The notes below the pieces were generated by a model. The model did no database searches. It worked only from the letters and a program-made list of their open reading frames with translations, and was not told where the DNA came from. A DNA stretch of 27,128 bases from Cellvibrionales bacterium UBA4435 (GTDB lineage: Bacteria; Pseudomonadota; Gammaproteobacteria; Pseudomonadales; Porticoccaceae): assembly GCA_002390525.1 (NCBI GenBank), contig DGPR01000025.1, forward strand, positions 1-27,128. Reading direction: 5' to 3'. Below, piece by piece: positions 834-22,468 of the stretch (within the stretch, counting starts at the first letter, position 1; each line of letters begins with the position of its first letter). A program made the position numbers and the translations under genes.

Positions 834-848
834 AATAATTTTTAATCC

Positions 849-3522: not shown

Positions 3523-3673
3523 TACATAAATTCCTTCATATTTCGAAATTGAAAACGGCTCATGAGTATACTCACAAGCCGGATATTATCATAATAATAA
3601 GCAAATTTTTTTTGCAATCTCTCTGAGAAATATCTCAGCAGACTATAACGAAGGGGTGGGCAAGAGATTCTAG
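3523..3673 (-). other. pstS-pstC intercistronic region with two stem-loops
   Basis: This 151-bp gap within the pst operon holds two inverted repeats. At 3556-3581, arms CGGCT/AGCCG enclose, after a 2-base mismatch, the 12-base palindrome TGAGTATACTCA. At 3623-3638, arms CTGAGA/TCTCAG enclose a 4-base loop. Neither is followed by a T-run on the minus strand, so they do not look like full Rho-independent terminators. Between a highly expressed binding protein and its permeases, such hairpins commonly stabilise the upstream mRNA or reduce readthrough (established for ABC operons generally). That role here is inference. Confidence 0.5.
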
Positions 3674-4792
3674 TTATTCCACACCCTTCATTATGGTCAT
3701 GTTTTTTATGTCATCTGAAAACTTAGATCGTAAATCTTTATTCATAGGGATCATACCCTTATCAGCCAAATAACCCTCTGGACCCCATGCTTTTTCACTA
3801 CTAAATTCTGCAGCATAGTCAGCAATTCGAGGTACAACATTTATATGTGCTTTTTTAATATAAAAGTATAAGGGACGTGCTATCGAATAACTTTTATCAG
3901 CTATACTTTCAAATGTAGGTTCTACTAACTCAACTGTTGAGCCTTGAACCTTGTCACTATTTTGATCTAAAAAAGAATATCCAAATATACCTAATGCATC
4001 TGGATTGGCTTCTAATTTCTGAATAATCAAGTTATCGTTTTCACCGGCCTCTATGTAGGCGCCATCCTCGCGAATAGCATGAGTGATTGCCTTAAAAACT
4101 TTCTTACCCTTCTCATTAAAAGCACTCGCAGGTATATCGAGATCTCTCATCATCTCTATAATTTTATTGCTATCCTTGCTTTTTCTTAAAGCTTTGAGAG
4201 CTTTAAAACTTTTAGCTCCGCCTTCCATTGCAAGCTCTACAAAAGCATCACGAGTTCCAGATGTTGGTGGAGGACCGATCACGACAATTGCTTTATCCGG
4301 TAGTGAAGGATTAACATCCTGCCAGGTTTTATTTGGGTTTTTTACCAATTTGCCGTTTGAATTTGGAATTTTGTCTGCCAAAGCTAAATAAATATCTTTA
4401 CGTGTTAAATTCATTTTTTTTGATTGAATAGAATTTGACAATACAATGCCGTCGTAACCAATAAGAACTTCGATAATTTCCGTTACGCCGTTATCTTGGC
4501 ATTTTTTAAACTCAGATTCTTTTATTCGTCTTGATGAATTTGTAATATCTGGGTATTTTGTACCAATGCCAGAACAAAATAACTTCATTCCACCACCTGA
4601 ACCAGTAGATTCTATTTTAGGTGTCAGACTACCAGTATTTTTTCCAAAGCGCTCTGCCACCACTGTGGCAAAAGGGTACACTGTTGAGGATCCTACAACA
4701 CTGATATAGTCACGAGATGCGGCGAACAGACTAGAGCTAAAAGAAAGTAGGCTAACAACAATAATGTAATTTTTTATACTAATGATTCTCAT
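3674..4792 (-). CDS. pstS: Periplasmic phosphate-binding protein PstS
   Basis: This protein captures phosphate in the periplasm and delivers it to PstCA. From the chosen start it has 372 residues and begins with a signal peptide: Arg and Lys near the N terminus, a hydrophobic core at about 9-20, and likely cleavage after LFA. The mature protein starts near ISVVGSSTVYPF, with the ligand-loop motifs ESTGSGGG and GPPPTSGTRDAF typical of PstS. I chose the ATG at 4792 rather than the in-frame ATG at 4819, because an AGGAGA ribosome site sits just upstream and the peptide then begins as a normal signal sequence. The -10 also lies near 4830, leaving no room for a leader to the earlier ATG. The promoter carries a Pho box, so phosphate-starvation induction by PhoB is expected. 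Confidence 0.95.
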   Translation of the reverse strand: MRIISIKNYIIVVSLLSFSSSLFAASRDYISVVGSSTVYPFATVVAERFGKNTGSLTPKIESTGSGGGMKLFCSGIGTKYPDITNSSRRIKESEFKKCQDNGVTEIIEVLIGYDGIVLSNSIQSKKMNLTRKDIYLALADKIPNSNGKLVKNPNKTWQDVNPSLPDKAIVVIGPPPTSGTRDAFVELAMEGGAKSFKALKALRKSKDSNKIIEMMRDLDIPASAFNEKGKKVFKAITHAIREDGAYIEAGENDNLIIQKLEANPDALGIFGYSFLDQNSDKVQGSTVELVEPTFESIADKSYSIARPLYFYIKKAHINVVPRIADYAAEFSSEKAWGPEGYLADKGMIPMNKDLRSKFSDDIKNMTIMKGVE

Positions 4793-4830
4793 ATTGAATC
4801 TCCTTTGATGATTTTTCATTGAGAATCATT
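4781..4830 (-). repeat. Perfect 11-bp inverted repeat across the pstS promoter and start codon
   Basis: The arms at 4781-4791 (AATGATTCTCA) and 4820-4830 (TGAGAATCATT) are exact reverse complements separated by 28 bases. The distal arm overlaps the proposed -10 hexamer. The proximal arm contains the TG of the pstS start codon and the first three sense codons. Depending on the true transcript start, this is either a pair of operator half-sites in DNA or a leader hairpin enclosing the ribosome site in its loop. Each arm resembles half of a Fur box (compare TGATAATCATT), but no complete 19-bp Fur box is present. Confidence 0.6.
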
Positions 4831-4833
4831 TTA
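4828..4833 (-). promoter_or_regulatory. Probable pstS -10 element
   Basis: TAAAAT on the minus strand matches the sigma-70 -10 consensus at 5 of 6 positions. It lies 9 bases past the Pho box, the expected spacing. The implied transcript start is near 4820, giving a leader of about 28 bases before the ATG at 4792. Confidence 0.6.
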
Positions 4834-4842
4834 CTCTACATT

Positions 4843-4860
4843 CATGACAGTAATATGACA
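4843..4860 (-). promoter_or_regulatory. Pho box upstream of pstS
   Basis: Read on the minus strand, the site is TGTCATA, four bases, TGTCATG: two 7-bp direct repeats at 11-bp spacing, which is the classical PhoB-binding layout and very close to its consensus. A -10-like TAAAAT lies at 4828-4833, about 10 bases downstream, as expected where PhoB replaces a -35 element. The orientation points to pstS, not to dctQ. This places the pst operon in the Pho regulon. Confidence 0.88.
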
Positions 4861-4902
4861 AAATCAACAAATGATAATTGACTGGTAAAATATACGCATA
4901 TT

Positions 4903-5475
4903 ATGAACATTAAAAATTTCATCAACTATAAATTTCACCTTTTTATTCGTAAGATAGCAACGAGTATAGATAATTTTACTGAATGGACAGGAAAAATAGT
5001 TTCATGGGCAGTCCTATTAATGGTTTTCTTAATGGGTTTAATAGTTTTAATGCGCTATTTTTTTGAAATCGGGTCGATTGCTCTACAGGAATCCTTAACT
5101 TACTTGCATGCGCTAGTTTTTTTGATGGGCGCAGCTTTTACACTAAAGAGAAAAGGGCATGTTAGTATCGATATTTTTTACCAGAAGTTCAGTCCTCACA
5201 CTCAGGCGGTAATTCAAGTATTAGGTACATTAGTGTTCTTGATGCCTGTTTGCATTGTGATTTTAACTCTCAGCTGGGATTACGTAATAAGCAGTTGGTC
5301 TATACAAGAAGTTTCAATGGAGGCAGAGGGCCTACCGTATATATATCTATTGAAAACATTATTAATAACTATGCCTGCATGTCTTTTACTACAGGGACTT
5401 TCTGAAGTTATAAAGAATTCTTTATTTCTATTTGATCAAATTAAAAGTGAAGCAGAGAGTGGTTCAGATGCTTGA
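4903..5475 (+). CDS. dctQ: TRAP transporter small membrane subunit (DctQ family)
   Basis: This is the four-helix small integral subunit of a tripartite ATP-independent periplasmic (TRAP) transporter, which imports organic acids or related solutes using a sodium or proton gradient. The 190-residue protein has hydrophobic segments near residues 33-55, 68-85, 103-127 and 150-168. It shows the family pattern RYFFEIGSIALQE near 49-61 followed by FLMGAAFTLKRKGHVSID near 75-92. It overlaps dctM by 8 bases. No strong ribosome site is visible before the ATG. The substrate cannot be told: specificity lies in the DctP binding protein, which is absent from this window. The gene is divergent from pstS across a 110-bp spacer. 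Confidence 0.9.
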   Translation: MNIKNFINYKFHLFIRKIATSIDNFTEWTGKIVSWAVLLMVFLMGLIVLMRYFFEIGSIALQESLTYLHALVFLMGAAFTLKRKGHVSIDIFYQKFSPHTQAVIQVLGTLVFLMPVCIVILTLSWDYVISSWSIQEVSMEAEGLPYIYLLKTLLITMPACLLLQGLSEVIKNSLFLFDQIKSEAESGSDA

Positions 5476-6835
5476 ATATATCCCTATAATTATGTTTGCT
5501 TCTGTTTGCGTAATAATCATGGCGGGCTACCCTGTAGCTTTTTCATTGGCAGGAACTGCACTTTTATTTGCAGTATACGGTAACGTAGCCAATATCTTCG
5601 ATATGGATTTTTTGCATGCTTTGCCAAATCGATTATACGGTATAATTGATAATACTATTCTAATAGCAGTTCCTTTATTTATTTTTATGGGTGTAATGCT
5701 AGAAAAGTCTAGCTTAGCTGAAAACCTACTGAATAGTATGTCTCAATTATTAAGAAATTTTAAAGGAGGGCTCGGTATATCGGTTGTTATGGTCGGTATG
5801 CTGTTGGCTGCTAGCACAGGAATTGTAGGCGCAACTGTAGTGACTATGGGGCTGATTTCTTTACCTACTATGCTCAAACAGGGGTATTCTCCCTCTCTAG
5901 CATCTGGGACTATTTGTGCGACAGGAACTCTTGGACAAATCATCCCGCCATCAATCGCTTTAGTGCTACTGGGCGATATCATTGCAAATTCTTATCAGCA
6001 AGCCCAGCTTGCTCAGGGTGTTTTTGCTCCAAAAACTATATCCGTTGGTGATCTTTTCTTAGGTGCAGTTGTCCCAGGAATGCTATTAATAATGATGTAT
6101 ATAGTTTATTTGACGCTTGTCGCACGTTTTGAACCACGATCTATGCCAATTGTTACTGAACAAAAAATAAAAAGTAGTTTTTTTCAACTACTTAAACCTT
6201 TAATGCCGCCTGTAATACTTATTTTTTCAGTACTAGGATCTATTTTGTTCGGTTTAGCCACCCCAACTGAAGCAGCAGGCATAGGTGCAATTGGGGCGAT
6301 TCTGCTTACTTATAATGCGAATATGCTTTCATATGACTTATTAAAAAAAGTGGCCCAAAAAACTACCGAAATTACCTCTATGATTTTCCTGATATTAATT
6401 GGTGCATCTATCTTCTCTTTAGTTTTTAGAGGTTTTGGTGGAGACCAACTAGTAGAAGATCTTTTGAAAAATATACCTGGAGGTCTTTTTGGAGCAACAT
6501 TTTTGGTTATGTTGCTAATATTTCTTCTTGGATTTATTCTCGATTTTATAGAAATAACTTATGTGGTTGTTCCAATTGTTGCCCCAGCTTTGCTTGGATT
6601 AGGTCTTGATCCGATTTGGCTTGGTATTATGATTGCAGTAAATTTACAAACTTCTTTTTTAACACCACCATTTGGTTTTTCATTATTTTATCTTAAAGGT
6701 GTAGCGCCAAATAGCGTACACATACAGGATATTTATAAAGGAGTGATGCCCTTTATAGCAATACAAATAATACTCATGGCACAACTTGCCATTTGGCCTT
6801 CAATTGCAACGTGGCTTCCATCTTTGAGTAACTAA
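5468..6835 (+). CDS. dctM: TRAP transporter large permease (DctM family)
   Basis: This is the large translocating subunit of the TRAP system, about 12 membrane segments in 455 residues. Family-typical stretches include GYPVAFSLAGTALLF near the N terminus, ASTGIVGATVVTMGLISLP in the first half, GTLGQIIPPS shortly after, ATPTEAAGIGAIGA in the middle and NLQTSFLTPPFGFSLFY near the end. I chose the ATG at 5468, not the upstream in-frame codon at 5432, because it forms an ATGCTTGA overlap with the dctQ stop and starts at the usual place for the family. The gene ends 10 bp before the convergent glutaredoxin gene, with no clear terminator between them. Confidence 0.93.
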   Translation: MLEYIPIIMFASVCVIIMAGYPVAFSLAGTALLFAVYGNVANIFDMDFLHALPNRLYGIIDNTILIAVPLFIFMGVMLEKSSLAENLLNSMSQLLRNFKGGLGISVVMVGMLLAASTGIVGATVVTMGLISLPTMLKQGYSPSLASGTICATGTLGQIIPPSIALVLLGDIIANSYQQAQLAQGVFAPKTISVGDLFLGAVVPGMLLIMMYIVYLTLVARFEPRSMPIVTEQKIKSSFFQLLKPLMPPVILIFSVLGSILFGLATPTEAAGIGAIGAILLTYNANMLSYDLLKKVAQKTTEITSMIFLILIGASIFSLVFRGFGGDQLVEDLLKNIPGGLFGATFLVMLLIFLLGFILDFIEITYVVVPIVAPALLGLGLDPIWLGIMIAVNLQTSFLTPPFGFSLFYLKGVAPNSVHIQDIYKGVMPFIAIQIILMAQLAIWPSIATWLPSLSN

Positions 6836-6845
6836 CGATCGAGAA

Positions 6846-7109
6846 CTAGTTGATCATATTCTTATCTCTAAGATATTTCATCAGCTCTTGGTACCCACCT
6901 ATGTATGAGTTATTGTAAAAAATTTGTGGGACTGTATTTGCAGGCTTTCCAATTTTTTGAGCTAGATCATCTGGGTTTATATTTTCTGTATGAATATCAA
7001 TGTAATCGAACTGTATAAGATTTGCCTGAAGAACTGTCTTTGCTTGACGACAAAATCCACATGCTTGATGTCCATATATAGTAAATATATCAATTTTATT
7101 ATCTATCAT
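6846..7109 (-). CDS. Glutaredoxin with a CGFC active site
   Basis: This small thiol-disulfide oxidoreductase uses glutathione to reduce protein disulfides or mixed disulfides. From the ATG at 7109 the protein has 87 residues, the normal size for a GrxC-type glutaredoxin. A longer reading from 7163 would add an 18-residue hydrophobic tail with no support. The active site is Cys17-Gly-Phe-Cys20, followed by the cis-proline motif TVP at 59-61 and GGY at 71-73. The usual dithiol site is CPYC and the monothiol class uses CGFS, so this motif is intermediate. The gene stands alone, divergent from glyQ and convergent with dctM. An AGGA sequence lies about 11 bases before the start. Confidence 0.9.
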   Translation of the reverse strand: MIDNKIDIFTIYGHQACGFCRQAKTVLQANLIQFDYIDIHTENINPDDLAQKIGKPANTVPQIFYNNSYIGGYQELMKYLRDKNMIN

Positions 7110-7255: not shown

Positions 7256-8209
7256 GTGTCGCAAATTAAGAAGGATTGTACTTCGTTTCAAGAGTTAATC
7301 TTATCCTTACAAAAATTTTGGTCTGATCATGGGTGTGTTATTTTGCAACCCCTTGATATGGAAGTTGGTGCAGGTACATTTCATCCAGCTACTTTTTTGC
7401 GTGCTATTGGACCTGAAGTTTGGAACTCCGCTTATGTACAACCATGTCGAAGGCCAGCTGATGGTCGGTATGGCGATAACCCAAATCGCCTTCAACATTA
7501 TTATCAATTTCAGGTGATACTAAAACCCTCGCCATCAAATATACAACAACTCTACTTAGACTCACTCAAAATGTTAGGAATTGATACAACAATACATGAT
7601 ATTCGTTTTGTTGAGGATAACTGGGAGTCTCCCTCGCTCGGTGCATGGGGGCTCGGCTGGGAAGTATGGCTTAATGGAATGGAGATAACACAATTTACAT
7701 ATTTCCAGCAAGTGGGCGGTCTTGAATGCTTTCCAGTGGCTGGAGAAATAACCTATGGTCTTGAGCGCATTGCCATGCATCTTCAAGGAGTTGACAATGT
7801 ATATGATCTGGTCTGGACCAGTGGCGATGAGGGTGTTGTAACCTACGGAGATGTATTTCATCAAAACGAGGTTGAAATGTCAGCATATAACTACGAAGAA
7901 GCTGATATTGATTTCATGCGCGAAACATTTAATCAACTCGAATCTGATTGTAGGCGACTTGTTAATAAAGGACTTCCGTTACCAGGTTACGAGATGGTTA
8001 TAAAGGCTTCGCATGCATTCAATTTGCTTGATGCACGCCACGCAATATCGGTAACTGAGAGGCAGCGTTATATTTTAAGGATTCGAACTCTAGCTAAGTC
8101 TGTTGCAGAAGCATACTTCAACTCTAGAAGTGCACTTGGATTTCCATTAGCATCAAAAGAAATGGCAGACAGGGCAATAAGGCGTATTGGGGGGAAAAGT
8201 AATGGCTGA
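7256..8209 (+). CDS. glyQ: Glycine--tRNA ligase alpha subunit
   Basis: This is the catalytic subunit of the bacterial alpha2beta2 glycyl-tRNA synthetase, which activates glycine and charges tRNA-Gly in the cytoplasm. The 317-residue product starts [14 protein letters not shown] and contains the strongly conserved [15 protein letters not shown] and [17 protein letters not shown] stretches (about residues 42-80), then [11 protein letters not shown] and the class II core with [10 protein letters not shown]. Translation begins at a GTG codon, preceded by a strong AGAGGAAG ribosome site. The gene overlaps glyS by 8 bases. Confidence 0.97.
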
Positions 8210-10283
8210 TTTTTTAGTGGAAATAGGCACAGAAGAGCTTCCACCTAAAGCATTAATGAATCTCGCTAACGCGTTTCATGATCATGTTGCTAATGGGTTC
8301 AAGAATAATACCTTTGGCTTCAGCAAGACAAAAGTTTTTGCCACTCCGAGAAGAATAGCAATTTTACTCGAAAATCTTGATAAACAAGCACCTAGTAAAG
8401 AAATCACTATCTGGGGACCTCCTACAAAAATTGCATTTGATGCAGCAGGTGAACCAACCGCGGCTGGCATAGCGTTTGCAAAAAAAAATAGTATTCCGAT
8501 AGAATCATTATCTGAGATGGTTGGAAACAACCAAGGAAAAGAAAAATTGTTCAGTAAATCGAAAAAACCAGGGTTAAAAGTAGAAGACCTTGCAGAAAAT
8601 TTGATTAGAGAAGCTATAAGCGCACTACCAATTCCAAAGAAAATGCGATGGGGTTCAAATGCTTTTGAGTTTATTCGCCCCTTACAATGGGTATTAATTT
8701 TGTTTGGTAACAAAATTATCAATTCACAAATTATGGGTTTAAAAGCAAGTAATATAACCTACGGTCATCGATTTCATAGCAAGAATCAAATTATAGTAGA
8801 TGAGCCAAGGGAGTATGAATCTTGTCTCCGCGAAGCCAATGTAATTGCTTGTTTCTCTGAACGTAGAGAGCTAATAAGCTCTGCTATAAAGAAAATAGCA
8901 AAAAAAGTATGCGGAATAGCTATTGTTGATGCTTCATTGCTTGATGAAGTAACAGCACTTAATGAATGGCCTGTAGCGCTTCTAGGTAGCTTTGACAGAG
9001 AATTTCTAGAAGTGCCAACCGAAGCACTAATTTCGTCAATGGCAGAGCATCAAAAATATTTTCATTTAACTAATACTGATGGTGAGCTTTTACCACTTTT
9101 CATAACAATTTCTAATATTGAAAGCAAAGATTCCTCTCAAATAATTCGTGGCAATGAAAGAGTTATTCGGCCGAGGCTATCCGATGCTGCTTTTTTTTAT
9201 AACACTGATAAAAAAACTACGCTCGAGAAAAGGAGAGAGTCACTAAAGTCTATAATTTTTCAAGAACAGCTCGGTACTATATACGAAAAGACAGACCGCC
9301 TTAGTGCTCTCGCAGAGTATATTGCACCTATAGTTAATGCCGATATATCATTATCAGTTAGAGCAGCTCAGTTATGTAAGTCAGACTTAGTAACAGATAT
9401 GGTTGGAGAGTTTGAAAGTCTTCAAGGAATCATGGGAAAGTATTATGCAACTAACGATGGAGAAAAGCCTGAAGTTGCTGAGGCGATACAAGAGCACTAC
9501 TTGCCAAAATTTTCTAAGGATGCAATACCCAAAACAGCTATAGGTATAACTTTAGCTATTTGTGATCGTCTAGATACATTAGTTGGAATATTTGGTATCG
9601 GACAACAACCATCTGGCTCAAAAGACCCATTTGCACTCCGCCGTTCCAGTCTAGGGCTACTGAGAATAATCATTGAACATAATATAAATTTAAATCTTTA
9701 TGAAGTTTTAAAAAAGGCAGCTACAGGGCACCAGCAACTGCAAACTGATGATGATCAAATTTGTATGCAAGTACTCACTTACGTAAAAGAACGCTTTAGA
9801 GCTTGGTATGAAGAAGAAGGTATACCAACTGAAGTTTTTTTATCTGTTTCTGCCAGAAACCTAAATAACCCTCTCGATATACATCGGCGCGTATATGCAG
9901 TCCATACGTTCACTAGATTCCCTGAAGCCGTAACATTAGCCGCTGCAAACAAAAGAGTATCTAATATACTTGCAAAAAATCCATTAAAGGATATGTCAGC
10001 GCCAATTAATAAGGACCTTTTGTGCGAGCCGTCAGAGCTCGCATTAACTAAAATAGTTGAAAATCTTGAGAAAAAAATACAGCCATTGCTCCAAGAACAG
10101 TCATATACGTCAGTATTAAAACTATTGTCTGGACTTGCCATACCTATAGATAATTTCTTCGATGATGTTATGGTTGTGACTGACGATGATGAAACACGTA
10201 TCAATCGTCTTGTACTGTTGCACAAATTAAGGGCTTTATTTCTCCAGGTAGCTGATATTTCATTATTGGTTCCAGAGAGATGA
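8202..10283 (+). CDS. glyS: Glycine--tRNA ligase beta subunit
   Basis: This is the tRNA-recognition subunit that pairs with GlyQ. At 693 residues it has the normal length. It begins [18 protein letters not shown], the family's signature start, and carries the conserved [13 protein letters not shown] region ([12 protein letters not shown]) and [16 protein letters not shown] in the middle. The C-terminal third is an anticodon-binding domain, with [10 protein letters not shown] leading into it. I chose the ATG at 8202, behind a GGGG-rich ribosome site and overlapping the glyQ stop (ATGGCTGA), rather than the in-frame codon at 8187. It is followed after 47 bp by gmhB. Confidence 0.97.
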
Positions 10284-10885: not shown

Positions 10886-14039
<3,154 letters not shown>

Positions 14040-14059
14040 CTAGATAAATATTTTTTTGA

Positions 14060-15145
14060 TCATTGAGTAATCTTTCCATGTTCCACGTGAAACATTTTCA
14101 TATTAAGGTCTTCTTTGGGCCAACTGTTTAGCAGGTCTTCCTTAAGCACACCAGTTACAAAAGTTTGTGCCCCTAAATCCCACAATAATTTACCTACTTT
14201 TTTTCTATGAGAAAAATCTAACTCGGAGGGTAAGTCATCTATCAAATATAGACACTTTTCTGCTGTTTTTTCATAATACAAATACCCCTGAGCTATTTGC
14301 ATTGCAGCAACCAAAATTTTTGATTGACCTCTAGACAGAACCTCGTTGGCCGGTTTTGCATCAAGGCTAATTCGTAAATCTGACCTCTGAGGCCCATGAG
14401 TCGTTACTCTCATGTTTATGTCCTTTTGTTGATTCTTCTCTAGTATTTCTAATAATTTTTTATCAGTATCCCAACCTGAATAATACTTGAATTCAAAGTT
14501 ACCCAGATCTGTAATTTCACTTAAAACCCACTTTATTTTTTCAACTAAGCCCACAAGATAAATCTTTCGATATTTATCAATTGCTTCTGCAAAGCTTACA
14601 AACTCGGTATTCCATGAATTAAGTAAATCAACGTTTATTCTATCACATCGCAACAATGAATTCCGCTGCTTAAGAGTTCGTTTAAAGTTTTTAAGTGATT
14701 TTCTGTATGAATGTTCCACGTGGAACAATCCCCAATCCAGGTATTGTCGTCTAAATTGAGGTCCGCCGTCTAACAACTTGAATGTATCAGAATTAATGAG
14801 TAAAAGGGGCATTGTGTCTGCTAAAGACGATGAATTATTGACCTTTTGCCCATTCATTTTAAACCTAAAATCGTTATTTCGAGTTCTTGTGACACCCAGA
14901 GATATGTTTACATCATTTTTGTCGATTAACCCAAAAACTGTACAGGACTCTTCGTTTTCATTAATTACAAGGTCTAATGTGCGTGATCGAAATGATCTTC
15001 CACGACCAAGGACATACAATCCTTCGAGGACACTTGTTTTTCCACTACCATTTTCACCAAAAAAGAAATTAGATGTTGGAGATAACGATACTTCGTTGCT
15101 AGTTAAATTTCTTAGGCCGTGTATACCAATTTTTTTAAGGTGCAT
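14060..15145 (-). CDS. recF: DNA replication and repair protein RecF
   Basis: This SMC-like ATPase helps load RecA at single-strand gaps with RecO and RecR. The 361-residue protein has Walker A GENGSGKT at 30-37, the family stretch QYLDWGLFHVEH at 134-145, ABC signature SRGQSK at 271-276 and Walker B LYLIDD at 299-304. It follows dnaN by 9 bp. Unusually, two parS centromere sites lie within its coding DNA, producing the pentapeptide FHVEH at residues 141-145 and again at 352-356. The first coincides with a conserved RecF segment, the second with the variable C terminus. Confidence 0.96.
   Translation of the reverse strand: MHLKKIGIHGLRNLTSNEVSLSPTSNFFFGENGSGKTSVLEGLYVLGRGRSFRSRTLDLVINENEESCTVFGLIDKNDVNISLGVTRTRNNDFRFKMNGQKVNNSSSLADTMPLLLINSDTFKLLDGGPQFRRQYLDWGLFHVEHSYRKSLKNFKRTLKQRNSLLRCDRINVDLLNSWNTEFVSFAEAIDKYRKIYLVGLVEKIKWVLSEITDLGNFEFKYYSGWDTDKKLLEILEKNQQKDINMRVTTHGPQRSDLRISLDAKPANEVLSRGQSKILVAAMQIAQGYLYYEKTAEKCLYLIDDLPSELDFSHRKKVGKLLWDLGAQTFVTGVLKEDLLNSWPKEDLNMKMFHVEHGKITQ
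14079..14094. promoter_or_regulatory. parS site 1 (inside recF 3' end)
   Basis: TGTTCCACGTGAAACA is a 16-bp near-palindrome (14 of 16 positions symmetric) and matches a well-known chromosomal parS form bound by ParB/Spo0J. It lies in the last codons of recF, encoding MFHVEH. A parA-parB operon is present at 25.0-26.7 kb to read it. Confidence 0.93.
14712..14727. promoter_or_regulatory. parS site 2 (inside recF)
   Basis: TGTTCCACGTGGAACA is a perfect 16-bp palindrome identical to the consensus parS of many bacteria. It lies in the middle of recF, encoding LFHVEH, 633 bp from site 1. A random exact match in a window of this size is very unlikely. Confidence 0.95.
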
Positions 15146-15154
15146 AATTTCAGG

Positions 15155-16252
15155 TTATAGACGCATTGGCATTACAACGTATGTGGAATTTGGATTCGCC
15201 GGGTCTTCGATTAACACACTGCTACCAGCATTAGAAAAAGTAAAACTTGCATCGTCACCGCTTAAAATATTAAGAATATCAATTATATAGCTTACATTAA
15301 ACCCAAGCTCTAGGTCATCATGATCATATTTAACAGTAACCTCTTCTCTCGCTTCGTCTTGCTGATTTGTAGCCAAGAGCGTCAAGGTACCTTTTTGAAC
15401 TATTAGTTTAACGCCTCGATATTTCTCATTGGATAAAATAGCTGCTCGACTAAAACCACTTTGTAAATCAGTTCTTGAGCCTACCATCTGTTTATCGCCA
15501 TCTTTTGGTATGACTTGATCATAGTCAGGATAAGCCCCATCGACCAGTTTGGAGGTAAAACGAAAACCCTCGGTTACCACCTTCATGTAATTATCACTTA
15601 GTGTTATTAGAGCCTCCCCATTATCGGGTAGCAATCTAGAGAGCTCAATAACGGCTTTTCTTGGAATTATTGCCTGAGTTTTTTCGCCATGAAGTTCTAT
15701 TTTCCCAGAATCCATCATAGCTAATCTGTGTCCATCTGTAGCTACTGTTCTAACTCTGTTATCATCCAAGTCTAACAGCATACCATTCAGATAATAACGC
15801 ACATCCTGCTGAGCCATCGCAAAAGATGTTCGACTAATAAGATTATTTATCTCTTTGTTACTGATATTAAATGATTTACCTGAATCACCTTCATCTATAC
15901 TTGGAAACTCGTCAGCTGGAAGGGAAGAAAGTGTAAATCGACTTCGACCGCTTATTATCTGAACTTTTCCATCTTTTTCTGTAAACGTAATATCTGTTGA
16001 TTCTGGTAAAGATCGACAGATATCCATTAATTTACGTGCAGGTACAGTTATCTCGCCATTTGCTTCAGGGTCTCTAAGCATTACATGACCAACAATTTCA
16101 ACCTCAAGATCAGTTCCTGTCATGGATAAACAGTTATCTTTTAATGCTATTAAAACATTAGACAGTATTGGTAGTGTCTGCCTTCTTTCAACCACCCCAA
16201 CCACTAATTGTAGGGGCTGGAGTAAATCTTCACGGGAAATTTTGAATTTCAT
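15155..16252 (-). CDS. dnaN: DNA polymerase III beta sliding clamp
   Basis: This is the ring-shaped processivity clamp that tethers polymerase III and many partner proteins to DNA. The 365-residue product has the family's three-domain size, starts MKFKISREDLLQPLQLVVGVVERRQTLPIL and ends YVVMPMRL, the conserved C terminus forming part of the partner-binding pocket. It lies between dnaA (53 bp upstream) and recF (9 bp downstream) in the usual dnaA-dnaN-recF-gyrB operon order. Nothing looks damaged or unusual. Confidence 0.97.
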   Translation of the reverse strand: MKFKISREDLLQPLQLVVGVVERRQTLPILSNVLIALKDNCLSMTGTDLEVEIVGHVMLRDPEANGEITVPARKLMDICRSLPESTDITFTEKDGKVQIISGRSRFTLSSLPADEFPSIDEGDSGKSFNISNKEINNLISRTSFAMAQQDVRYYLNGMLLDLDDNRVRTVATDGHRLAMMDSGKIELHGEKTQAIIPRKAVIELSRLLPDNGEALITLSDNYMKVVTEGFRFTSKLVDGAYPDYDQVIPKDGDKQMVGSRTDLQSGFSRAAILSNEKYRGVKLIVQKGTLTLLATNQQDEAREEVTVKYDHDDLELGFNVSYIIDILNILSGDDASFTFSNAGSSVLIEDPANPNSTYVVMPMRL

Positions 16253-16305
16253 CTACTAATAATCCAATTTGAAGTTTGTTTTTTACACCTTATGAGTAAA
16301 TATAT

Positions 16306-17724
16306 TTAAGTAGTTAAGGCACGCAGTAAATGTTTCATGTCATCTTGCATATCCAAACTTTCTTCTTCGAGCTCTTTAATCTTTCTGCATGCGTGTAATA
16401 CAGTAGTATGATCACGACCTCCGAATGCTTCACCGATTTCGGGTAAACTATGATTAGTTAATGTTTTGGCGAGGGCCATTGCTACTTGTCTGGGTCTTGC
16501 TATTGATCTGCTACGTCTTTTAGACAAAAGCTCGGACATTTTTAACTTGTAGTATTCAGATACTACTCTCTGTATATTGTCAATAGTTACCAGCCTATCC
16601 TGTATGGCAAGTAAATCTTTCAAAGATTCACGTATAAGATCGACATTAATCGGACTACCTGTAAAGTGAGCACTTGCTATCACTCTTTTTAACGCCCCCT
16701 CGAGCTCTCGTACATTAGAGCGTATTCTTTGTGCGATAAAAAAGGCTGCTTCTGTTGGTAAATTAACGCGCGCTTGAGTAGCTTTTTTTATTAATATTGC
16801 AGCTCTGGTCTCTAATTCTGGTGGTTCTACCGCAACAGTGAGACCCCACCCAAAACGAGATTTTAAACGTTCTTCTAAGCCATCAATCTCTTTTGGGTAG
16901 CGGTCACAAGTAAGTATCATTTGTTTTCCTCCCTCTAACAGGGCGTTAAAGGTATGAAAGAATTCTTCCTGTGAACGCTCTTTGCCCGCAAAGAATTGCA
17001 TATCATCGATTAAAAGTGCGTCTACAGAGCGATAAAATCTTTTAAAGTCATTGATGGCATTTAATTGTAATGCTTTAACCATATCTGCAACAAACCGCTC
17101 AGAATGTAAATATATAATTTTAGCGTTTGGTTTTTGTTGTCGTAGGCTATTACCAACTGCATGCATTAAATGAGTTTTACCCAAGCCCACTGCACCATAA
17201 ATAAACAACGGGTTGTAGGCACCACCAGGATTTTCTGATATCTGTTTTGATGCTGCTAAAGCTAGTTGATTAGACTTCCCTTCGACAAAAGAATCAAATG
17301 TAAAAGTGGAGTTCAGGAAGCTTTTATGATTGAGGCCACCCTCTACAGTGTCAGTTGTCCTGTCTGGCGGTATTCTTATAGAAGTGGTTGCTGGTAATGG
17401 TTTGCTAGTAATAATTTGTGGTTGAGCAGGTGGCGCCTCACGTGAATCAGGTTTGTTTGATGATTTACTTCCGAGAGACGACTCTACTTTAACAGAGCAG
17501 CGCACCCCGCTTAGCTGTTGAAATATTTCTGTGATACGTGAAATAAACTTATCCAGAACCCAATCTCGTATGAAATGATTAGGTGCTAACAAGAGCACAT
17601 CTTTATCAAGAGCGATTTCATCGATTGAACCAAGCTCAAGAGGCTTTATCCAGGTTTTAAATTGCTGTTTTGGCAACTCTTCTTCGAGAAGACACAAACA
17701 TTTTTTCCAAACGACTTGAGCCAA
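16306..17724 (-). CDS. dnaA: Chromosomal replication initiator protein DnaA
   Basis: DnaA binds DnaA boxes, melts the origin and recruits the helicase. The 472-residue protein shows domain I (residues 1-80, with [10 protein letters not shown]), a proline-rich linker (about 90-135), the AAA+ domain with Walker A GAVGLGKT at 177-184 and Walker B LLIDD at 237-241, and the DNA-binding domain IV with [11 protein letters not shown] at 435-445. Translation must start at TTG (17722-17724): the in-frame codon two positions upstream is a TAA stop and the family N terminus aligns exactly here. GAGGGG about 9 bases upstream is the ribosome site. A weak start codon may keep DnaA low (inference). A perfect DnaA box 70 bp upstream suggests autoregulation. 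Confidence 0.97.
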
Positions 17725-17793
17725 GCTTTACTACCCCTCAAATACAAGAAATTTACTTTTATTTACGATCTAGTCTAGCCACAAATAGTTGAG

Positions 17794-17802
17794 TTATCCA
17801 CA
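17794..17802 (+). promoter_or_regulatory. DnaA box, perfect (TTATCCACA)
   Basis: TTATCCACA is the high-affinity consensus DnaA-binding 9-mer (TTATNCACA). It lies 70 bp upstream of the dnaA start codon. Confidence 0.85.
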
Positions 17803-17931
17803 ACTTTTATAAAAAAAATTAAAAGGCTTAGAACAAATAAAAACGTTTAAAAACAACAAGTTATAAAATACGACTGACTGTGTTTATAGACAGCATATTT
17901 TCACAAATAATAGCTCTATATAAGTAGAAGC

Positions 17932-17940
17932 TGTGTATAA
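17932..17940 (-). promoter_or_regulatory. DnaA box, perfect (TTATACACA)
   Basis: The minus strand reads TTATACACA, a full match to TTATNCACA. It is in opposite orientation to the box at 17794 and 25 bp before the tandem pair. Confidence 0.8.
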
Positions 17941-17964
17941 GATGTTGATAATTTGACGATTATT

Positions 17965-17984
17965 TGTGGATTATTTGTGGATTA
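17965..17984 (-). repeat. Tandem pair of near-consensus DnaA boxes, 11-bp period
   Basis: The 11-bp unit TATTTGTGGAT is repeated directly. Each copy contains, on the minus strand, TAATCCACA (17965-17973 and 17976-17984), one mismatch from TTATCCACA. A period of 11 bp places both boxes on nearly the same face of the helix, favouring side-by-side DnaA binding. Confidence 0.65.
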
Positions 17985-18055
17985 TTCATTTAATATGTTA
18001 GTTGTTATTGGCCAAAATTCATATAATAAATTTATGACTTAAAATCATTTATTAG

Positions 18056-19423
18056 TCACTTTCCGATACAGAAGCTACCGAATATTTGTCCTAATAAATC
18101 ATCACTACTAAAAACACCTGTTATGGATGACAGAGATTGCTGTGCATGACGTAAATCTTCAGCCAGTAATTCTCCTGCGGCCGCTCTTAACAATTGTTTT
18201 TTTCCTGACATTAGATAATTTTCTGTATTATTTAGCGCTTCAATATGTCGACGTCGCGCCACAAAAGAGCCCTCATTAGTTCCTGTATAGCCCATACAGC
18301 TCTTCAGATGATCTCCAAGCGCCTCGAGTCCATCGTGGCTTTTTGCAGAAAGAATGACTGTAGCAAGCTTGTCTTGTCTGATCCCGGGAGACAGGTCGGA
18401 AATATCAGATTTATTTAGTACAAAAGTGATATTATTCCTCGTTGGGTAACGACTGAAGTATTCAGGCCAGTTTTCTTGTATATTCAAAGAATATTTTGAA
18501 TTGCTATCTATCACATATAAGACTCTATCGGCTTGATCAATTTCATCCCAAGCTCTCTTAATACCCTCTTGTTCTAAGGAATTTTTTGTCTCATGAAGCC
18601 CGGCTGTGTCTATTATATGCAGGGGCATACCGTCTAGGTGGATATGTTCTCTTAAAACATCTCTTGTGGTACCAGCTATATCTGAAACAATTGCACTGTC
18701 TCTTTTTGAAAGAGCATTTAAAAGACTTGATTTTCCAGCATTAGGTTTACCAGCTATGACTACCGACATACCCTCTGAAACCAATGAACCCTGGTGGGCT
18801 CTCTCTTTAGTTTTTTTAACTAGGCTGAGCAAGGATTCCAGCTCTATGCTTATTTTTGGATCAGCGAGAAAATTAATTTCTTCTTCCGGAAAATCTATTG
18901 CAGCCTCAACGTAAGTGCGCAAACTTACTAAGTTTTCTAACAAAGTAGCAATTTGTTTAGAAAATTCACCCTGTAGCGATCTTATAGCACACCTTGCAGC
19001 CTGTTCTGAAGATGCAAGTATTAGATCGGAGATAGCCTCGGCTTGTATTAAATCTATTTTATTATTAAGGAACGCACGTTCAGAAAACTCGCCTGCACGA
19101 GCTAATCGAGCTCCCAGTTTTAGGCTACGCTGTAATAACAAATCCATGACTGCTGGGCCGCCGTGACCATGCAGCTCAAGGACCTCTTCTCCAGTAAATG
19201 AGTTTGGTGCGGGAAAATAAATAGCTATGCCCTTATCTATGATTACATTTTCATCGTCTGTAAAGCTTGCATATACCGCTGATCTAGGTTCAAGTTTTTT
19301 GGAAACAAATTTTGATAAAAAAACAGAAAGGTTCGAGCCGGAAATACGCAGTATAGAGACCCCGCCTTTCCCAGGTGGTGTCGCAATGGCACATATATTG
19401 TCAGTATCAGTGATTACGGTCAT
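18056..19423 (-). CDS. mnmE: tRNA modification GTPase MnmE
   Basis: With MnmG, this GTPase makes the 5-carboxymethylaminomethyl modification of wobble uridine 34. The 455-residue protein has the folate-binding N-terminal domain, the GTPase with Walker A GKPNAGKSS at 225-233, DTAG at 272-275 and NKSD further on, and the essential C-terminal CIGK motif. In the Pseudomonas order mnmE lies next to its partner mnmG, but here the two are about 3 kb apart on opposite strands. Its 3' end faces the dnaA promoter region and it sits last in the rpmH-rnpA-yidD-yidC-mnmE transcription unit. Confidence 0.97.
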   Translation of the reverse strand: MTVITDTDNICAIATPPGKGGVSILRISGSNLSVFLSKFVSKKLEPRSAVYASFTDDENVIIDKGIAIYFPAPNSFTGEEVLELHGHGGPAVMDLLLQRSLKLGARLARAGEFSERAFLNNKIDLIQAEAISDLILASSEQAARCAIRSLQGEFSKQIATLLENLVSLRTYVEAAIDFPEEEINFLADPKISIELESLLSLVKKTKERAHQGSLVSEGMSVVIAGKPNAGKSSLLNALSKRDSAIVSDIAGTTRDVLREHIHLDGMPLHIIDTAGLHETKNSLEQEGIKRAWDEIDQADRVLYVIDSNSKYSLNIQENWPEYFSRYPTRNNITFVLNKSDISDLSPGIRQDKLATVILSAKSHDGLEALGDHLKSCMGYTGTNEGSFVARRRHIEALNNTENYLMSGKKQLLRAAAGELLAEDLRHAQQSLSSITGVFSSDDLLGQIFGSFCIGK

Positions 19424-19474
19424 TCATAGCCTCAAATATTCATGCATGTTATCGGTATGTGTGTCCTTTTTGAT

Positions 19475-21163
19475 TTAAGCGTTCTCTATTTTGCGAGTAA
19501 TGTACCACTGTTGGAGAATAGAAAGACAGTTGTTTACGGTCCAATACAACACTAAGCCTGCGGGGAAAAACAAAAAGAAGAAAGTAAACGCTATAGGCAT
19601 GATCTTCATTACTTTGGCCTGAATTGGATCTGGGGGCGTTGGGTTAAGCTGCATTTGTATAAACATACTAGCTCCCATAATCAAAGGAAGAACGAAAAAC
19701 GGGTCTTTTACAGAAAGATCATTAATCCAAAGCACCCAAGGTGCGTGTCTTAGCTCAACGCTTTCCATTAACACCCAATATAATGCTATAAAAACTGGCA
19801 TTTGCACCAATATAGGCAGACAACCTCCCATTGGGTTAACCTTTTCTCGTTTATATAAACTCATTGTTTCTTGTGACATTTTTTGTCTGTCATCGCCATA
19901 AAGATCTTTCAAGCGGAGCATTTCTGGTTGTAATTTGCGCATATTGGCCATAGAGGTATAACTTTTCGCTGATAGCTGAAAAAAAGCTGCTTTTATTAAA
20001 ATCGTTAGCATAATTATGGACCAGCCCCAGTTATCGAAGATCTCGTGTAGTTGATACAAAACCCAGAAAAGGGGCTTTGCAATCATCCACAGCCACCCAT
20101 AATCTACAGTCAAATCAAGATATGGTGAAATTTTTTCAAGACGATATTGGTCCTTAGGGCCCGTATAAAAAGCTGCTTCGAGCTCGGCCTTTTCTCCAGG
20201 TTTTAGTTGGACTTGGGGTGAAGTAAAACCCATGATATAAAAATCTTGGTTGCTGATCTTTCTTACATTAAAGTTATTTCGAATATTTTGATCTGGCACC
20301 CAAGCACTTACGAAATAATGTTGGACCATTGCCACCCAACCACCATCAACGGTGTCTTTAAAAGTTTCATCGCTTATTTCAGAAAAGTTTAGTTTTTTGT
20401 AGTTTTTTTCATTAGTGGTTAAAGCTGCACCAAGGAAGGGTTGCATTCCCATCGCAGTAACATTGGTTGGATTGTGGCTATCTCTTTTTATTTGACCATA
20501 GAGCCCGGCCTGCCAGACAGAAGCGCTTTGGTTGTTTATTTGGTACTCTAGATTAATTAAGTAATCTGTTCTTTTAAAGGTAAACTGCTTAACAATCTGA
20601 ACCCCTTCCTGTTCAAGCATCAGGCGAACAACAAGGTTTTCCTCACTATCGTTTAGCTCATATTGACCAGCAACTGTTGTAAATACTGGTCTTCCTTTTT
20701 TTGTATCCGTTCCATTTACGCCTATTAGTCCACTTTGGGCTAAAAAAGTTGAGTCTTGTGCTCTATTTAATAGGATGAAGGGTGTTTCCTTGTCTGTAAT
20801 ATTTTGTAGGTGTTCGAGAAGCTCAACCCTAACAATATCTCCACCATGAGTATCAATATGCACCCTTAAAACATCTGTAGTAACAACAACCAATCGAGCA
20901 TCAGTGTTTATATCATCAGCGGTGGATGTATCGGTGACGTTTGATGTTTTTTCTGCATTTAATAGCGGTGAGCTTACAGGAATATCGTCCATTGATTCTT
21001 TTGTTTGAGGTTTGGTGGTTGCTGGAATATCAGGGATTACCAGCTGGTTTGAAGAGTCAGCTAGGATGAGATTTCTTTTTGACTGGAAACCATCCCACTC
21101 GAGAAAAAGCATATACAAAACAACCAACATAGCACCAATGAGAAAAGAACGCTGCCAATCCAT
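19475..21163 (-). CDS. yidC: Membrane protein insertase YidC
   Basis: YidC inserts and folds inner-membrane proteins, alone or with SecYEG. The 562-residue protein is the Gram-negative type: a first membrane segment at about 6-20, a large periplasmic beta-sandwich domain (about 30-345), then the conserved five-helix insertase core from about 354, including VNPMGGCLPILVQMP at 442-456 and PAGLVLYWTVNN near 534-545. It starts one base after the yidD stop and is followed by mnmE after 51 bp. Confidence 0.97.
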   Translation of the reverse strand: MDWQRSFLIGAMLVVLYMLFLEWDGFQSKRNLILADSSNQLVIPDIPATTKPQTKESMDDIPVSSPLLNAEKTSNVTDTSTADDINTDARLVVVTTDVLRVHIDTHGGDIVRVELLEHLQNITDKETPFILLNRAQDSTFLAQSGLIGVNGTDTKKGRPVFTTVAGQYELNDSEENLVVRLMLEQEGVQIVKQFTFKRTDYLINLEYQINNQSASVWQAGLYGQIKRDSHNPTNVTAMGMQPFLGAALTTNEKNYKKLNFSEISDETFKDTVDGGWVAMVQHYFVSAWVPDQNIRNNFNVRKISNQDFYIMGFTSPQVQLKPGEKAELEAAFYTGPKDQYRLEKISPYLDLTVDYGWLWMIAKPLFWVLYQLHEIFDNWGWSIIMLTILIKAAFFQLSAKSYTSMANMRKLQPEMLRLKDLYGDDRQKMSQETMSLYKREKVNPMGGCLPILVQMPVFIALYWVLMESVELRHAPWVLWINDLSVKDPFFVLPLIMGASMFIQMQLNPTPPDPIQAKVMKIMPIAFTFFFLFFPAGLVLYWTVNNCLSILQQWYITRKIENA

Positions 21164-21164
21164 A

Positions 21165-21416
21165 TTATTGCTTCCTGTTATTTTTATCTAAATGAGGTAC
21201 GGGGTCATAGCCGCTAGATCCAAAGGGGTGACATTTTATAAGTCGGCAACACAAAAGATGTGTTCCTTTAAAAATACCATGTGCCCTTATAGCCTTTTCA
21301 GCGTAAGAAGAACAGCTTGGATAAAATCTACAATTGTTTCCCATCCAGGGACTTAGTAAATATCTGTATAGTTTTATGGGAAAAATATATGCTGTCTCTA
21401 GTAAAGTTTTGATCAT
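21165..21416 (-). CDS. yidD: Membrane protein insertion efficiency factor YidD
   Basis: This small membrane-associated protein assists YidC-dependent insertion. The 83-residue product has the family core YRYLLSPWMGNNCRFYPSCS followed by a second cysteine region (LLCCRLIKCHPFGSSGYDPVP). It lies between rnpA (8 bp away) and yidC (1 bp away), its normal position. Confidence 0.94.
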   Translation of the reverse strand: MIKTLLETAYIFPIKLYRYLLSPWMGNNCRFYPSCSSYAEKAIRAHGIFKGTHLLCCRLIKCHPFGSSGYDPVPHLDKNNRKQ

Positions 21417-21424
21417 AGCGGGTT

Positions 21425-21778
21425 CTATGTTTTGTTTTTTAGTTGATCTAAACCCAAAGAAATCGACTTAGATTGATCTTTAAATGATAGTTTATTCATA
21501 CCTTTCCGAACAAGAAATATTATATCTAAAGCAGCGAGATTTTGTTGGTTTAGTCTAAAAGATGACCTTATAACCCTCTTTATCCTATTTCGGCCAACAG
21601 AAAGCCGTATATTTTTTTTTGCAACAATCATTCCGAGCCTAGCATGTTTAAGTTTATTTTGGTGAGCCAATAATAAAAAATTGGAGTTAGAAACTTTAAG
21701 ATCTGTGTTTTCAAAGACGGATTGAAAGGATTGTGCGTTTAATAGCCGTTTGCTTTTCTCGAAGTTGAAATTGGGCAT
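21425..21778 (-). CDS. rnpA: Ribonuclease P protein component
   Basis: This basic protein pairs with the RNase P RNA to mature tRNA 5' ends. The 117-residue product carries the diagnostic GRNRIKRVIRSSFR motif near residues 62-75 and an N-terminal KSKRLLNAQSFQSVF. It follows rpmH by 70 bp in the universal rpmH-rnpA pair. Confidence 0.95.
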   Translation of the reverse strand: MPNFNFEKSKRLLNAQSFQSVFENTDLKVSNSNFLLLAHQNKLKHARLGMIVAKKNIRLSVGRNRIKRVIRSSFRLNQQNLAALDIIFLVRKGMNKLSFKDQSKSISLGLDQLKNKT

Positions 21779-21848
21779 ATTAGATATTGATGATATGTTT
21801 GTTTAAAACACGGTGGCTCACAAGATGAGGGTGATTTCAACCTATAGG

Positions 21849-21983
21849 CTACGATGCGAGTCTTTTGCGGCCTTTCGCTCGTCGGCGATTTATGACTGCT
21901 CTTCCTGCTTTTGTGGCCATTCGTGAACGAAATCCGTGAGTTCGCTTCTGTTTAAGTACGCTGGGTTGAAATGTTCTTTTCAT
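21849..21983 (-). CDS. rpmH: 50S ribosomal protein L34
   Basis: I translated this short gene directly from the minus strand. The 44-residue product begins [20 protein letters not shown], continues with [20 protein letters not shown] and ends LAS before TAG. This is a full-length, textbook L34. It is the first gene of the rpmH-rnpA-yidD-yidC-mnmE unit, preceded by a good promoter at 22029-22057 and divergent from mnmG. Confidence 0.98.
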
Positions 21984-22028
21984 GACAGGTTTCCGTTTAC
22001 TAACTAGTATATTTCATTAACGTGTTGG

Positions 22029-22057
22029 ATTTTAATGAAAAAGCTTCTTTAGATCAA
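22029..22057 (-). promoter_or_regulatory. Probable rpmH promoter
   Basis: On the minus strand a -35 TTGATC (22052-22057) and a -10 TAAAAT (22029-22034) are separated by exactly 17 bp. The leader to the rpmH ATG would be about 40 bases. Matches are 4/6 and 5/6 to sigma-70 consensus. Confidence 0.6.
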
Positions 22058-22116
22058 TGAAAGAATTTGCTTTTTTTGGATACAGTTTTGTTTGTATTGT
22101 TTAAACTCCTTTTGTT

Positions 22117-22125
22117 TGTGAATAA
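22117..22125 (-). promoter_or_regulatory. DnaA box, perfect (TTATTCACA)
   Basis: The minus strand reads TTATTCACA, matching TTATNCACA. It lies 60 bp upstream of the proposed rpmH -35, in the same orientation as the box at 22173. Confidence 0.7.
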
Positions 22126-22172
22126 AATTGCAAAAAGGTCATGAAAGCTTATGTATGGGTAGTGGATTGTTT

Positions 22173-22181
22173 TGTGAATAA
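22173..22181 (-). promoter_or_regulatory. DnaA box, perfect (TTATTCACA)
   Basis: This is a second identical TTATTCACA on the minus strand, 56 bp from the first. The surrounding 12 bases (TTTTGTGAATAA on the plus strand) nearly repeat those at the first box (GTTTGTGAATAA). Confidence 0.7.
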
Positions 22182-22404
22182 AGGCGGCTTTTTATTTTCT
22201 GTTGATAACAGGTCATTTTGTTCACAACTTGCACAGAGCTATAATACACCTTTTGCTCAACTTACAAAAAGGATTTAATTGCTAATAAACATATGATAAA
22301 ACTATGTTTTTTTTAGTTTTACACAAAAAAGGGCTCCTGTAATAATAATTACAATAATAATATATATACATAAACACATATATAACTTGTTAATTGAGAT
22401 TACG

Positions 22405-22433
22405 TTGGCACTTAATGTTTATGATCTTATAAT
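22405..22433 (+). promoter_or_regulatory. Strong sigma-70 promoter for mnmG
   Basis: The -35 TTGGCA (22405-22410) and -10 TATAAT (22428-22433) are separated by 17 bp, a 5/6 and 6/6 match to consensus. It is among the best promoters in the window. The transcript would start near 22440, about 29 bases before the mnmG ATG. Confidence 0.8.
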
Positions 22434-22468
22434 GGCCCTGCAAAAAATAATTCTTAGAACCCTTGTTT

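What the first reader, a model, noticed from the sequence alone, without database searches (positions are those of the whole stretch)
17725..22468. The rpmH-to-mnmE block is inverted relative to the Pseudomonas-type origin order
In the Pseudomonas order, mnmG-mnmE-yidC-rnpA-rpmH all point away from dnaA, with rpmH and dnaA divergent around oriC. Here rpmH-rnpA-yidD-yidC-mnmE runs toward dnaA on the same strand, and rpmH is divergent from mnmG. One inversion with breakpoints between mnmG/mnmE and between rpmH/dnaA explains this exactly. It separates mnmE from its partner mnmG and allows readthrough from a ribosomal-protein operon into the dnaA control region.
Basis: partly seen in the sequence, partly recalled or inferred. 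Interest (0 to 1): 0.72.

Follow-up and report, generated by a model that had tools for sequence, protein, structure and literature searches.

The report
Flipped gene block beside replication origin
In one family of marine bacteria a block of five housekeeping genes next to the chromosome's replication origin was turned around once in the family's ancestor, apparently so that these genes are now read in the direction the DNA is copied instead of against it.

Summary
In detail: rpmH-rnpA-yidD-yidC-mnmE runs toward dnaA on one strand, with mnmG divergent. It is no assembly error. Of 103 family genomes (Porticoccaceae, incl. SAR92) with a hit to either gene, 98 show it by rule, and it was read directly in all 14 genera. 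It was not seen in 118 scorable other genomes of the order sample or 98 of the class sample. Carriers form one clade with one change.

The likely meaning is new. Relatives and this family keep an E. coli-like DnaA-box module upstream of mnmG. Fourfold-site GC skew of the block is lagging-like in canonical relatives and leading-like here, while control genes do not differ. So oriC probably stayed beside mnmG, and the inversion turned the block from head-on to co-directional, leaving oriC between two genes that read away from it.

Against this: P. aeruginosa oriC is published next to dnaA, the dnaA gap also has DnaA boxes, an E. coli single-genome control did not show the skew, the window's own skew is uninformative, and replication was not measured.

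The parts
18056..21983 (-). Inverted block rpmH-rnpA-yidD-yidC-mnmE, reading toward dnaA
   Evidence: ORFs and translations; NCBIfam rpmH TIGR01030, rnpA TIGR00188, yidD TIGR00278, yidC NF002352, mnmE NF003661; order compared with 80 DnaA-centred loci
21984..22468 (.). Gap mnmG|rpmH: upstream breakpoint junction and proposed oriC
   Evidence: DnaA boxes at 3.46 per locus (up to 1 mismatch) against 0.21 in shuffles over 37 inverted loci; skew switch here for the family as a group
22340..22384 (.). AT-rich stretch (91% A+T), candidate duplex-unwinding element on the mnmG side of the boxes
22317..22325 (+). First box of the mnmG-side module (TTTTACACA, 2 mismatches)
22200..22208 (-). Second box of the module (TTATCAACA, 1 mismatch), 117 bp from the first, opposite orientation
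22173..22181 (-). Third box (TTATTCACA, 1 mismatch), 27 bp from the second; a further TTATTCACA at 22117-22125
17725..18055 (.). Gap mnmE|dnaA: downstream breakpoint junction and dnaA control region
   Evidence: DnaA boxes at 2.51 per locus against 0.14 shuffled over 39 inverted loci; no terminator-like site
17930..17984 (-). Row of five 11-bp units, four of them DnaA-box-like (TAATCCACA twice, TTATCAACA, TTATACACA)
17794..17802 (+). Exact DnaA box TTATCCACA about 70 bp upstream of dnaA
22469..24349 (+). mnmG, divergent from rpmH, followed by rsmG, parA, parB on the same strand
   Evidence: TIGR00136; rsmG, parA (superfamily only), parB
11616..17724 (-). dnaA-dnaN-recF-gyrB, undisturbed neighbour cluster, used as leading-strand reference
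7256..10283 (+). glyQ-glyS, reading toward the origin; lagging-strand reference in the skew test

Best explanation
SHOWN: one inversion of the rpmH-rnpA-yidD-yidC-mnmE block happened in the common ancestor of the Porticoccaceae and is present in all 14 genera examined. INFERRED from composition and DnaA-box geometry: the chromosome's origin lies next to mnmG, as in E. coli, both in mnmG-linked relatives with the canonical order and here. The inversion flipped only the block between oriC and dnaA. In the relatives the block is transcribed against the fork and reads toward oriC. In this family it is transcribed with the fork and reads away from oriC. MORE SPECULATIVE: the inversion was kept because it removes head-on collisions in an essential translation and membrane-insertion operon, and because divergent transcription of mnmG and rpmH puts negative supercoils into oriC from both sides.
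For: Clade-wide single event: 98 of 103 family genomes by rule; outside the family 0 of 118 scorable, of 131, in the order sample and 0 of 98 scorable, of 142, in the class sample; 39 inverted rows one clade, support 100, one change. Skew: block minus dnaA..gyrB at fourfold sites is +0.016 in 39 inverted loci and -0.200 in 30 mnmG-linked canonical loci (p=1.5e-9), while lagging controls glyQS (p=0.38) and leading controls mnmG..parB (p=0.45) do not differ; the block lies above glyQS in 30 of 33 inverted and 5 of 17 canonical loci. In the canonical loci mnmE is below its same-strand neighbour mnmG in 27 of 30, which puts the switch between those two genes. Likelihood of the switch at the mnmG side exceeds the dnaA side in 10 of 11 genomes, sums +38.6 (7 inverted) and +26.3 (4 canonical) ln units. 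Box module (opposed boxes 115-118 bp apart) in 13 of 37 inverted and 14 of 30 canonical mnmG gaps, against 0.27% and 0% of shuffles; the AT-rich maximum lies on its mnmG side in 12 of 13 and 12 of 14. E. coli K-12 oriC is annotated about 110 bp from mnmG, its first exact box lies about 167 bp from mnmG, and its rpmH..mnmE block is head-on relative to that oriC. In E. coli transcription reading away from oriC, but not into it, bypasses the ppGpp block of initiation (PMC6606810, passages).
Against: No replication was measured. In P. aeruginosa oriC is described as adjacent to dnaA and dnaN (PMC3642087, passage). The dnaA-side gap also carries DnaA boxes, with an exact one in all 69 loci scored, and 4 of 30 canonical dnaA gaps hold the 115-118 bp module too. 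24 of 37 inverted mnmG gaps lack the strict module. The skew method fails as a single-genome control in E. coli: block +0.121 against dnaA..gyrB +0.078 although the block is head-on there. In the window itself skew is uninformative (block -0.24, mnmG side -0.32, dnaA..gyrB -0.13). In 5 of 11 genomes the best switch lay more than 10 kb away, in G110 the dnaA side was 0.3 units better and the leading/lagging sign was reversed, and six genomes (G006, G008, G010, G024, G045, G050) were chosen after one search had shown strong contrast in them or kin; these give 55.1 of the 64.9 units, the other five 9.8. The 66 unlinked canonical loci, mostly Halomonadaceae, are intermediate (block minus dnaA..gyrB -0.122). 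Inverted genomes are one clade, so not independent samples of the event. For the supercoiling idea: the same paper notes that blocking gidA or mioC transcription on the E. coli chromosome does not affect replication in exponential growth (PMC6606810, passage).
Confidence: 0.72

Rival explanations
1. oriC lies at the dnaA gap (Pseudomonas-type). The inversion then turned the block head-on toward the origin without functional gain; it is a neutral relic.
For: Published P. aeruginosa oriC adjacent to dnaA and dnaN (passage); an exact DnaA box in all 39 inverted and all 30 canonical dnaA gaps scored; an 11-bp-spaced box row upstream of dnaA in the window and an 11-bp direct pair in 15 of 39 inverted loci.
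Against: With oriC at the dnaA gap the block would be leading in canonical and lagging in inverted genomes; the skew shows the reverse. Boxes at the dnaA gap are also expected from DnaA autoregulation of dnaA (recalled).
Confidence: 0.15
2. Both gaps act together as a bipartite origin, with the block as the spacer between the two box clusters. The inversion changes the spacer's direction only.
For: Both gaps hold box clusters in both groups, at similar distances from mnmG and from dnaA. Bipartite origins are known in B. subtilis and H. pylori, and two P. aeruginosa elements were studied (PMC4403523, passages).
Against: Skew marks the mnmG side rather than the dnaA side; the 115-118 bp module occurs in 0 of 39 inverted dnaA gaps.
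Confidence: 0.12
3. The skew difference is caused by changed transcription of the block (new promoters), not by replication direction.
For: Transcription also skews coding strands (general knowledge); yidC in E. coli has high skew although head-on.
Against: yidC and mnmE shift together, while neighbouring dnaA, gyrB, mnmG and glyQS do not shift comparably.
Confidence: 0.1
4. Misassembly or binning error at one of the two junctions.
For: The window is a contig of a 52-contig, 87.8%-complete assembly.
Against: Same junctions in many independent assemblies of different species, including genomes listed as one contig (G009, G087, G110, G120).
Confidence: 0.005

Closest known systems
[quoted passage not shown]
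   Same: Same genes, same outer order and strands
   Different: The inner block rpmH..mnmE is reversed, so mnmG faces rpmH and mnmE precedes dnaA
Escherichia coli oriC (mnmG/gidA-oriC-mioC)
   Same: Box cluster directly upstream of mnmG; first strong box opposed to later ones; AT-rich stretch on the mnmG side here, as recalled for the E. coli unwinding element; the rpmH..mnmE block of canonical Pseudomonadales stands to a mnmG-side origin as in E. coli, head-on
   Different: Opposed-box spacing about 106 bp in E. coli against 115-118 bp here; mioC reads into oriC in E. coli, whereas rpmH reads away here; dnaA is about 42 kb away in E. coli and under 5 kb here
Pseudomonas-type oriC (rpmH-dnaA gap)
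   Same: DnaA boxes upstream of dnaA are kept
   Different: rpmH is no longer next to that gap; skew places the switch at mnmG
Replication-transcription co-orientation and gene inversion (PMC6220195, PMC9098844: search listing with start of abstract only)
   Same: An inversion that changes a gene block's direction relative to the fork
   Different: Here toward co-directional, beside the proposed oriC, fixed in a whole family

Membership tests
E. coli-type oriC (mnmG-adjacent) | DnaA-box cluster in the gap directly upstream of mnmG | tested here: met
   3.46 boxes per locus against 0.21 shuffled, 37 inverted loci; 31 of 37 have at least two; window has three at one mismatch
E. coli-type oriC (mnmG-adjacent) | Opposed boxes at fixed distance with an AT-rich stretch on the mnmG side | tested here: met
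   Met in the window (boxes at 137/254, AT-rich 78-123 from mnmG) and in 13 of 37 inverted loci; the other 24 lack the strict module
E. coli-type oriC (mnmG-adjacent) | Strand-composition switch at that gap | tested here: met
   Met for the family as a group; not resolvable in the window alone
E. coli-type oriC (mnmG-adjacent) | Replication initiates there in vivo | not testable with these tools
   No marker-frequency or nascent-strand data held
Pseudomonas-type oriC (rpmH-dnaA gap) | Origin gap bounded by rpmH and dnaA, divergent | tested here: not met
   The dnaA gap is bounded by mnmE, same strand
Pseudomonas-type oriC (rpmH-dnaA gap) | DnaA boxes upstream of dnaA | tested here: met
   1.74 exact boxes per locus, at least one in all 39 inverted loci
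Canonical origin gene cluster | mnmE-yidC-rnpA-rpmH pointing away from dnaA | tested here: not met
   Block inverted
Head-on to co-directional gene inversion | Block on the lagging strand before, leading strand after | tested here: inconclusive
   Met by composition, but the method failed on one E. coli control and fork direction was not measured

The most novel reading that the evidence does not exclude
The inversion rewired origin control. oriC in this family sits between two outward-reading promoters, one of them of the ribosomal-protein L34 operon, instead of having an operon reading toward it. Growth-rate-regulated ribosomal transcription would then feed negative supercoils into oriC, and the rest of the operon leads to dnaA, linking ribosome synthesis, origin opening and DnaA supply on one strand.
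Probability: 0.25. Interest if true: 0.72.

Novelty: new variant of a known kind. Interest (0 to 1): 0.55.

Why it matters
It is a clean natural experiment beside a bacterial origin: one block flipped once, its neighbours unchanged, kept in a whole marine family including SAR92. It allows a test of whether replication direction alone resets strand composition (same genes, same neighbours), whether head-on orientation of essential operons next to oriC is costly, and whether transcription reading away from oriC helps initiation outside E. coli. It also questions the habit of placing oriC at rpmH-dnaA in Pseudomonadales from gene order alone.

Tried and rejected
Misassembly: rejected, because many independent assemblies show the same junctions. 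Raw single-genome switch scans: too noisy in five of six genomes; kept only as the comparison of two places. Six genomes (G006, G008, G010, G024, G045, G050) were chosen after one search had shown strong contrast in them or kin, so its sum is not from a random draw. E. coli skew control: did not discriminate. Rfam on the window: no match. 16S in the assembly: none found, so taxonomy rests on protein relatives and the tree. A possible inverted case outside the family, G294 in the class sample (dnaA at the record start, mnmE near its end on the same strand), was checked: mnmE lies about 25 kb from the record end without yidC, rnpA or rpmH beside it, so it is not this arrangement. Literature: (Porticoccaceae, dnaA, origin of replication) 0 papers; (SAR92, Porticoccus, synteny, inversion; at least 3) 0 papers; the titles and abstract starts listed do not name this inversion. 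Only open-licence PMC papers are held, so absence from print is not shown. How the inversion event arose (for example recombination between the two box clusters): considered, no evidence beyond both ends lying in box-bearing gaps.

Full report
What is in the window. The window is contig C30 of a 1.2-Mb, 52-contig assembly. With dnaA read as plus the order is parB- parA- rsmG- mnmG- | rpmH+ rnpA+ yidD+ yidC+ mnmE+ | dnaA+ dnaN+ recF+ gyrB+ plsC- gmhB- glyS- glyQ-. Names were checked with NCBIfam: the block genes, dnaA-dnaN-recF-gyrB, mnmG, rsmG, parB, glyQ, glyS and gmhB exceed a model cut-off; ParA and PlsC match only below cut-off. The nearest DnaA relative among named genomes is an uncultured Porticoccus (82% identity).

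It is real and clade-wide. Of 80 DnaA-centred loci from named genomes, 22 have this order, all within what the tree shows to be one clade (Porticoccus, SAR92 and unnamed kin). The other 58 have the block on the opposite strand; in two of these only rnpA and rpmH could be seen. In the whole-genome survey of the window's family (112 genomes), 103 had at least one of dnaA and mnmE. Of these, 98 have mnmE directly 5' of dnaA on the same strand. G036 has it if its record is read across its start. G075 has one inverted and one canonical contig. Two have the genes on different contigs and one lacks one gene. Twenty family regions covering all 14 genera were read gene by gene and all are inverted; L153 and L154 end before mnmG, so in g14 the mnmG junction was not seen.

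Outside the family. In the order sample (135 genomes) only the four family members are inverted. Of the other 131, 104 are canonical, 14 have another geometry (nine of them with dnaA at the record start and mnmE near its end on the opposite strand, as canonical circular records would), 6 are split and 7 lack one gene: 118 scorable, none inverted. In the class sample (143 genomes; 140 with a hit) only the window's genome is inverted; 86 are canonical, 12 other, 30 split, 11 lack one gene: 98 scorable, none inverted. One of the 12, G294, was looked at because mnmE is on dnaA's strand; it lies about 25 kb away across the record start and alone. A FastTree of DnaA, DnaN, GyrB, MnmE and YidC (79 rows, 2593 columns) puts the 39 inverted loci in one clade (support 100) with one change of state. 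So the order is derived in the Pseudomonadales and ancestral in this family. One inversion with ends in the mnmG|mnmE and rpmH|dnaA gaps is enough.

Where is the origin? I tested this with fourfold-degenerate GC skew on the coding strand. Reference genes: dnaA..gyrB (leading under either model), mnmG..parB (leading), glyQ/glyS (reading toward the origin, lagging). In 39 inverted loci the block (yidC, mnmE, rnpA) is at -0.034 and dnaA..gyrB at -0.050; mnmG..parB is at -0.106 (36 loci) and glyQS at -0.167 (33 loci). In 30 canonical loci with mnmG next to mnmE the block is at -0.240 and dnaA..gyrB at -0.040; mnmG..parB is at -0.077 (30) and glyQS at -0.173 (17). The block difference between groups has p=1.5e-9; the two controls do not differ (p=0.38, 0.45). 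In canonical loci mnmE is below mnmG, its same-strand neighbour, in 27 of 30. The strand switch thus lies between mnmG and mnmE there, and between mnmG and rpmH here.

Weight of the skew result. A likelihood comparison on 38-140 kb stretches favours the mnmG side over the dnaA side in 10 of 11 genomes (sums +38.6 for 7 inverted, +26.3 for 4 canonical). In five of them the best place overall lay more than 10 kb off. Six were chosen for strong contrast seen earlier and supply 55.1 of the 64.9 units; the other five sum to +9.8. The 66 canonical loci without mnmG beside mnmE are intermediate. In E. coli, with known oriC and a head-on block, the same measure does not show it (block +0.121, dnaA..gyrB +0.078). 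In the window alone it is uninformative.

Box anatomy. Upstream of mnmG there are 3.46 DnaA boxes (up to one mismatch) per inverted locus and 3.43 per canonical locus, against 0.21 and 0.20 in shuffles; control gaps (gyrB|plsC, parA|rsmG) are near the shuffled level. A module of two opposed boxes 115-118 bp apart occurs in 13 of 37 inverted loci (the window among them) and 14 of 30 canonical loci, against 0.27% and 0% of shuffles, with a third box about 27 bp on in 9 of the 13 and 7 of the 14. The AT-richest 45 bp lies on its mnmG side in 12 of 13 and 12 of 14. The module therefore stayed with mnmG through the inversion. In E. coli K-12 oriC is annotated about 110 bp from mnmG with boxes at about 167 (-), 273 (+), 308 (-) and 347 (+) bp from mnmG. 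There the rpmH..mnmE block lies on the plus strand at lower coordinates than oriC, so it meets the fork head-on. The dnaA gap also keeps its boxes in both groups, which fits both dnaA autoregulation (recalled) and a second origin element; the module itself is in 0 of 39 inverted and 4 of 30 canonical dnaA gaps.

How it most likely works. Shown: the inversion, its single origin, its retention. Inferred: oriC upstream of mnmG; block formerly head-on and reading toward oriC, now co-directional and reading away. Speculative: the benefit. In E. coli transcription reading away from oriC, but not into it, bypasses the ppGpp block of initiation, although blocking gidA or mioC transcription on the chromosome has no effect in exponential growth (PMC6606810, passages). 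Here both neighbours of the proposed oriC read away.

Known or new. A review says the rnpA-rpmH-dnaA cluster was long assumed to mark oriC and that E. coli and many others differ (PMC4285127, passages). P. aeruginosa oriC is given as adjacent to dnaA and dnaN (PMC3642087, passage). Yee and Smith 1990 is not held. Two searches aimed at this family found nothing. I rate it a new variant of the known origin gene cluster.

Noticed in passing
17930-17984: Row of five 11-bp units upstream of dnaA, four of them DnaA-box-like; an 11-bp direct pair of boxes occurs in 15 of 39 inverted loci, while in canonical loci 12 bp is the commonest spacing (8 of 30).
   Followed up: partly
whole assembly G000: Small, AT-rich genome (1.2 Mb, 87.8% complete) in a genus whose other listed members, G001 aside, have 1.7-2.7 Mb; G001, whose DnaA is the most similar, has about 1.3 Mb. 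Looks like a reduced sublineage of Porticoccus.
   Followed up: no
L144, L152 (gap mnmE|dnaA): Gap between the mnmE and dnaA matches is about 1.0-1.1 kb in these two. Part of it is probably the DnaA N-terminus, which the match does not cover.
   Followed up: no
G075:C81: Second dnaA-mnmE pair with canonical order in a family genome listed at 5% contamination; probably a foreign contig.
   Followed up: partly
canonical loci without mnmG beside mnmE (66): In Halomonadaceae and some others no mnmG was found beside mnmE and the block's skew is intermediate; where their skew switch lies was not mapped.
   Followed up: no
1-7000: PstB (over cut-off) and a PstS-family protein (below cut-off), with two long ORFs between them that look like pst permeases by eye, beside a TRAP transporter large subunit; ordinary flanking genes.
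   Followed up: partly
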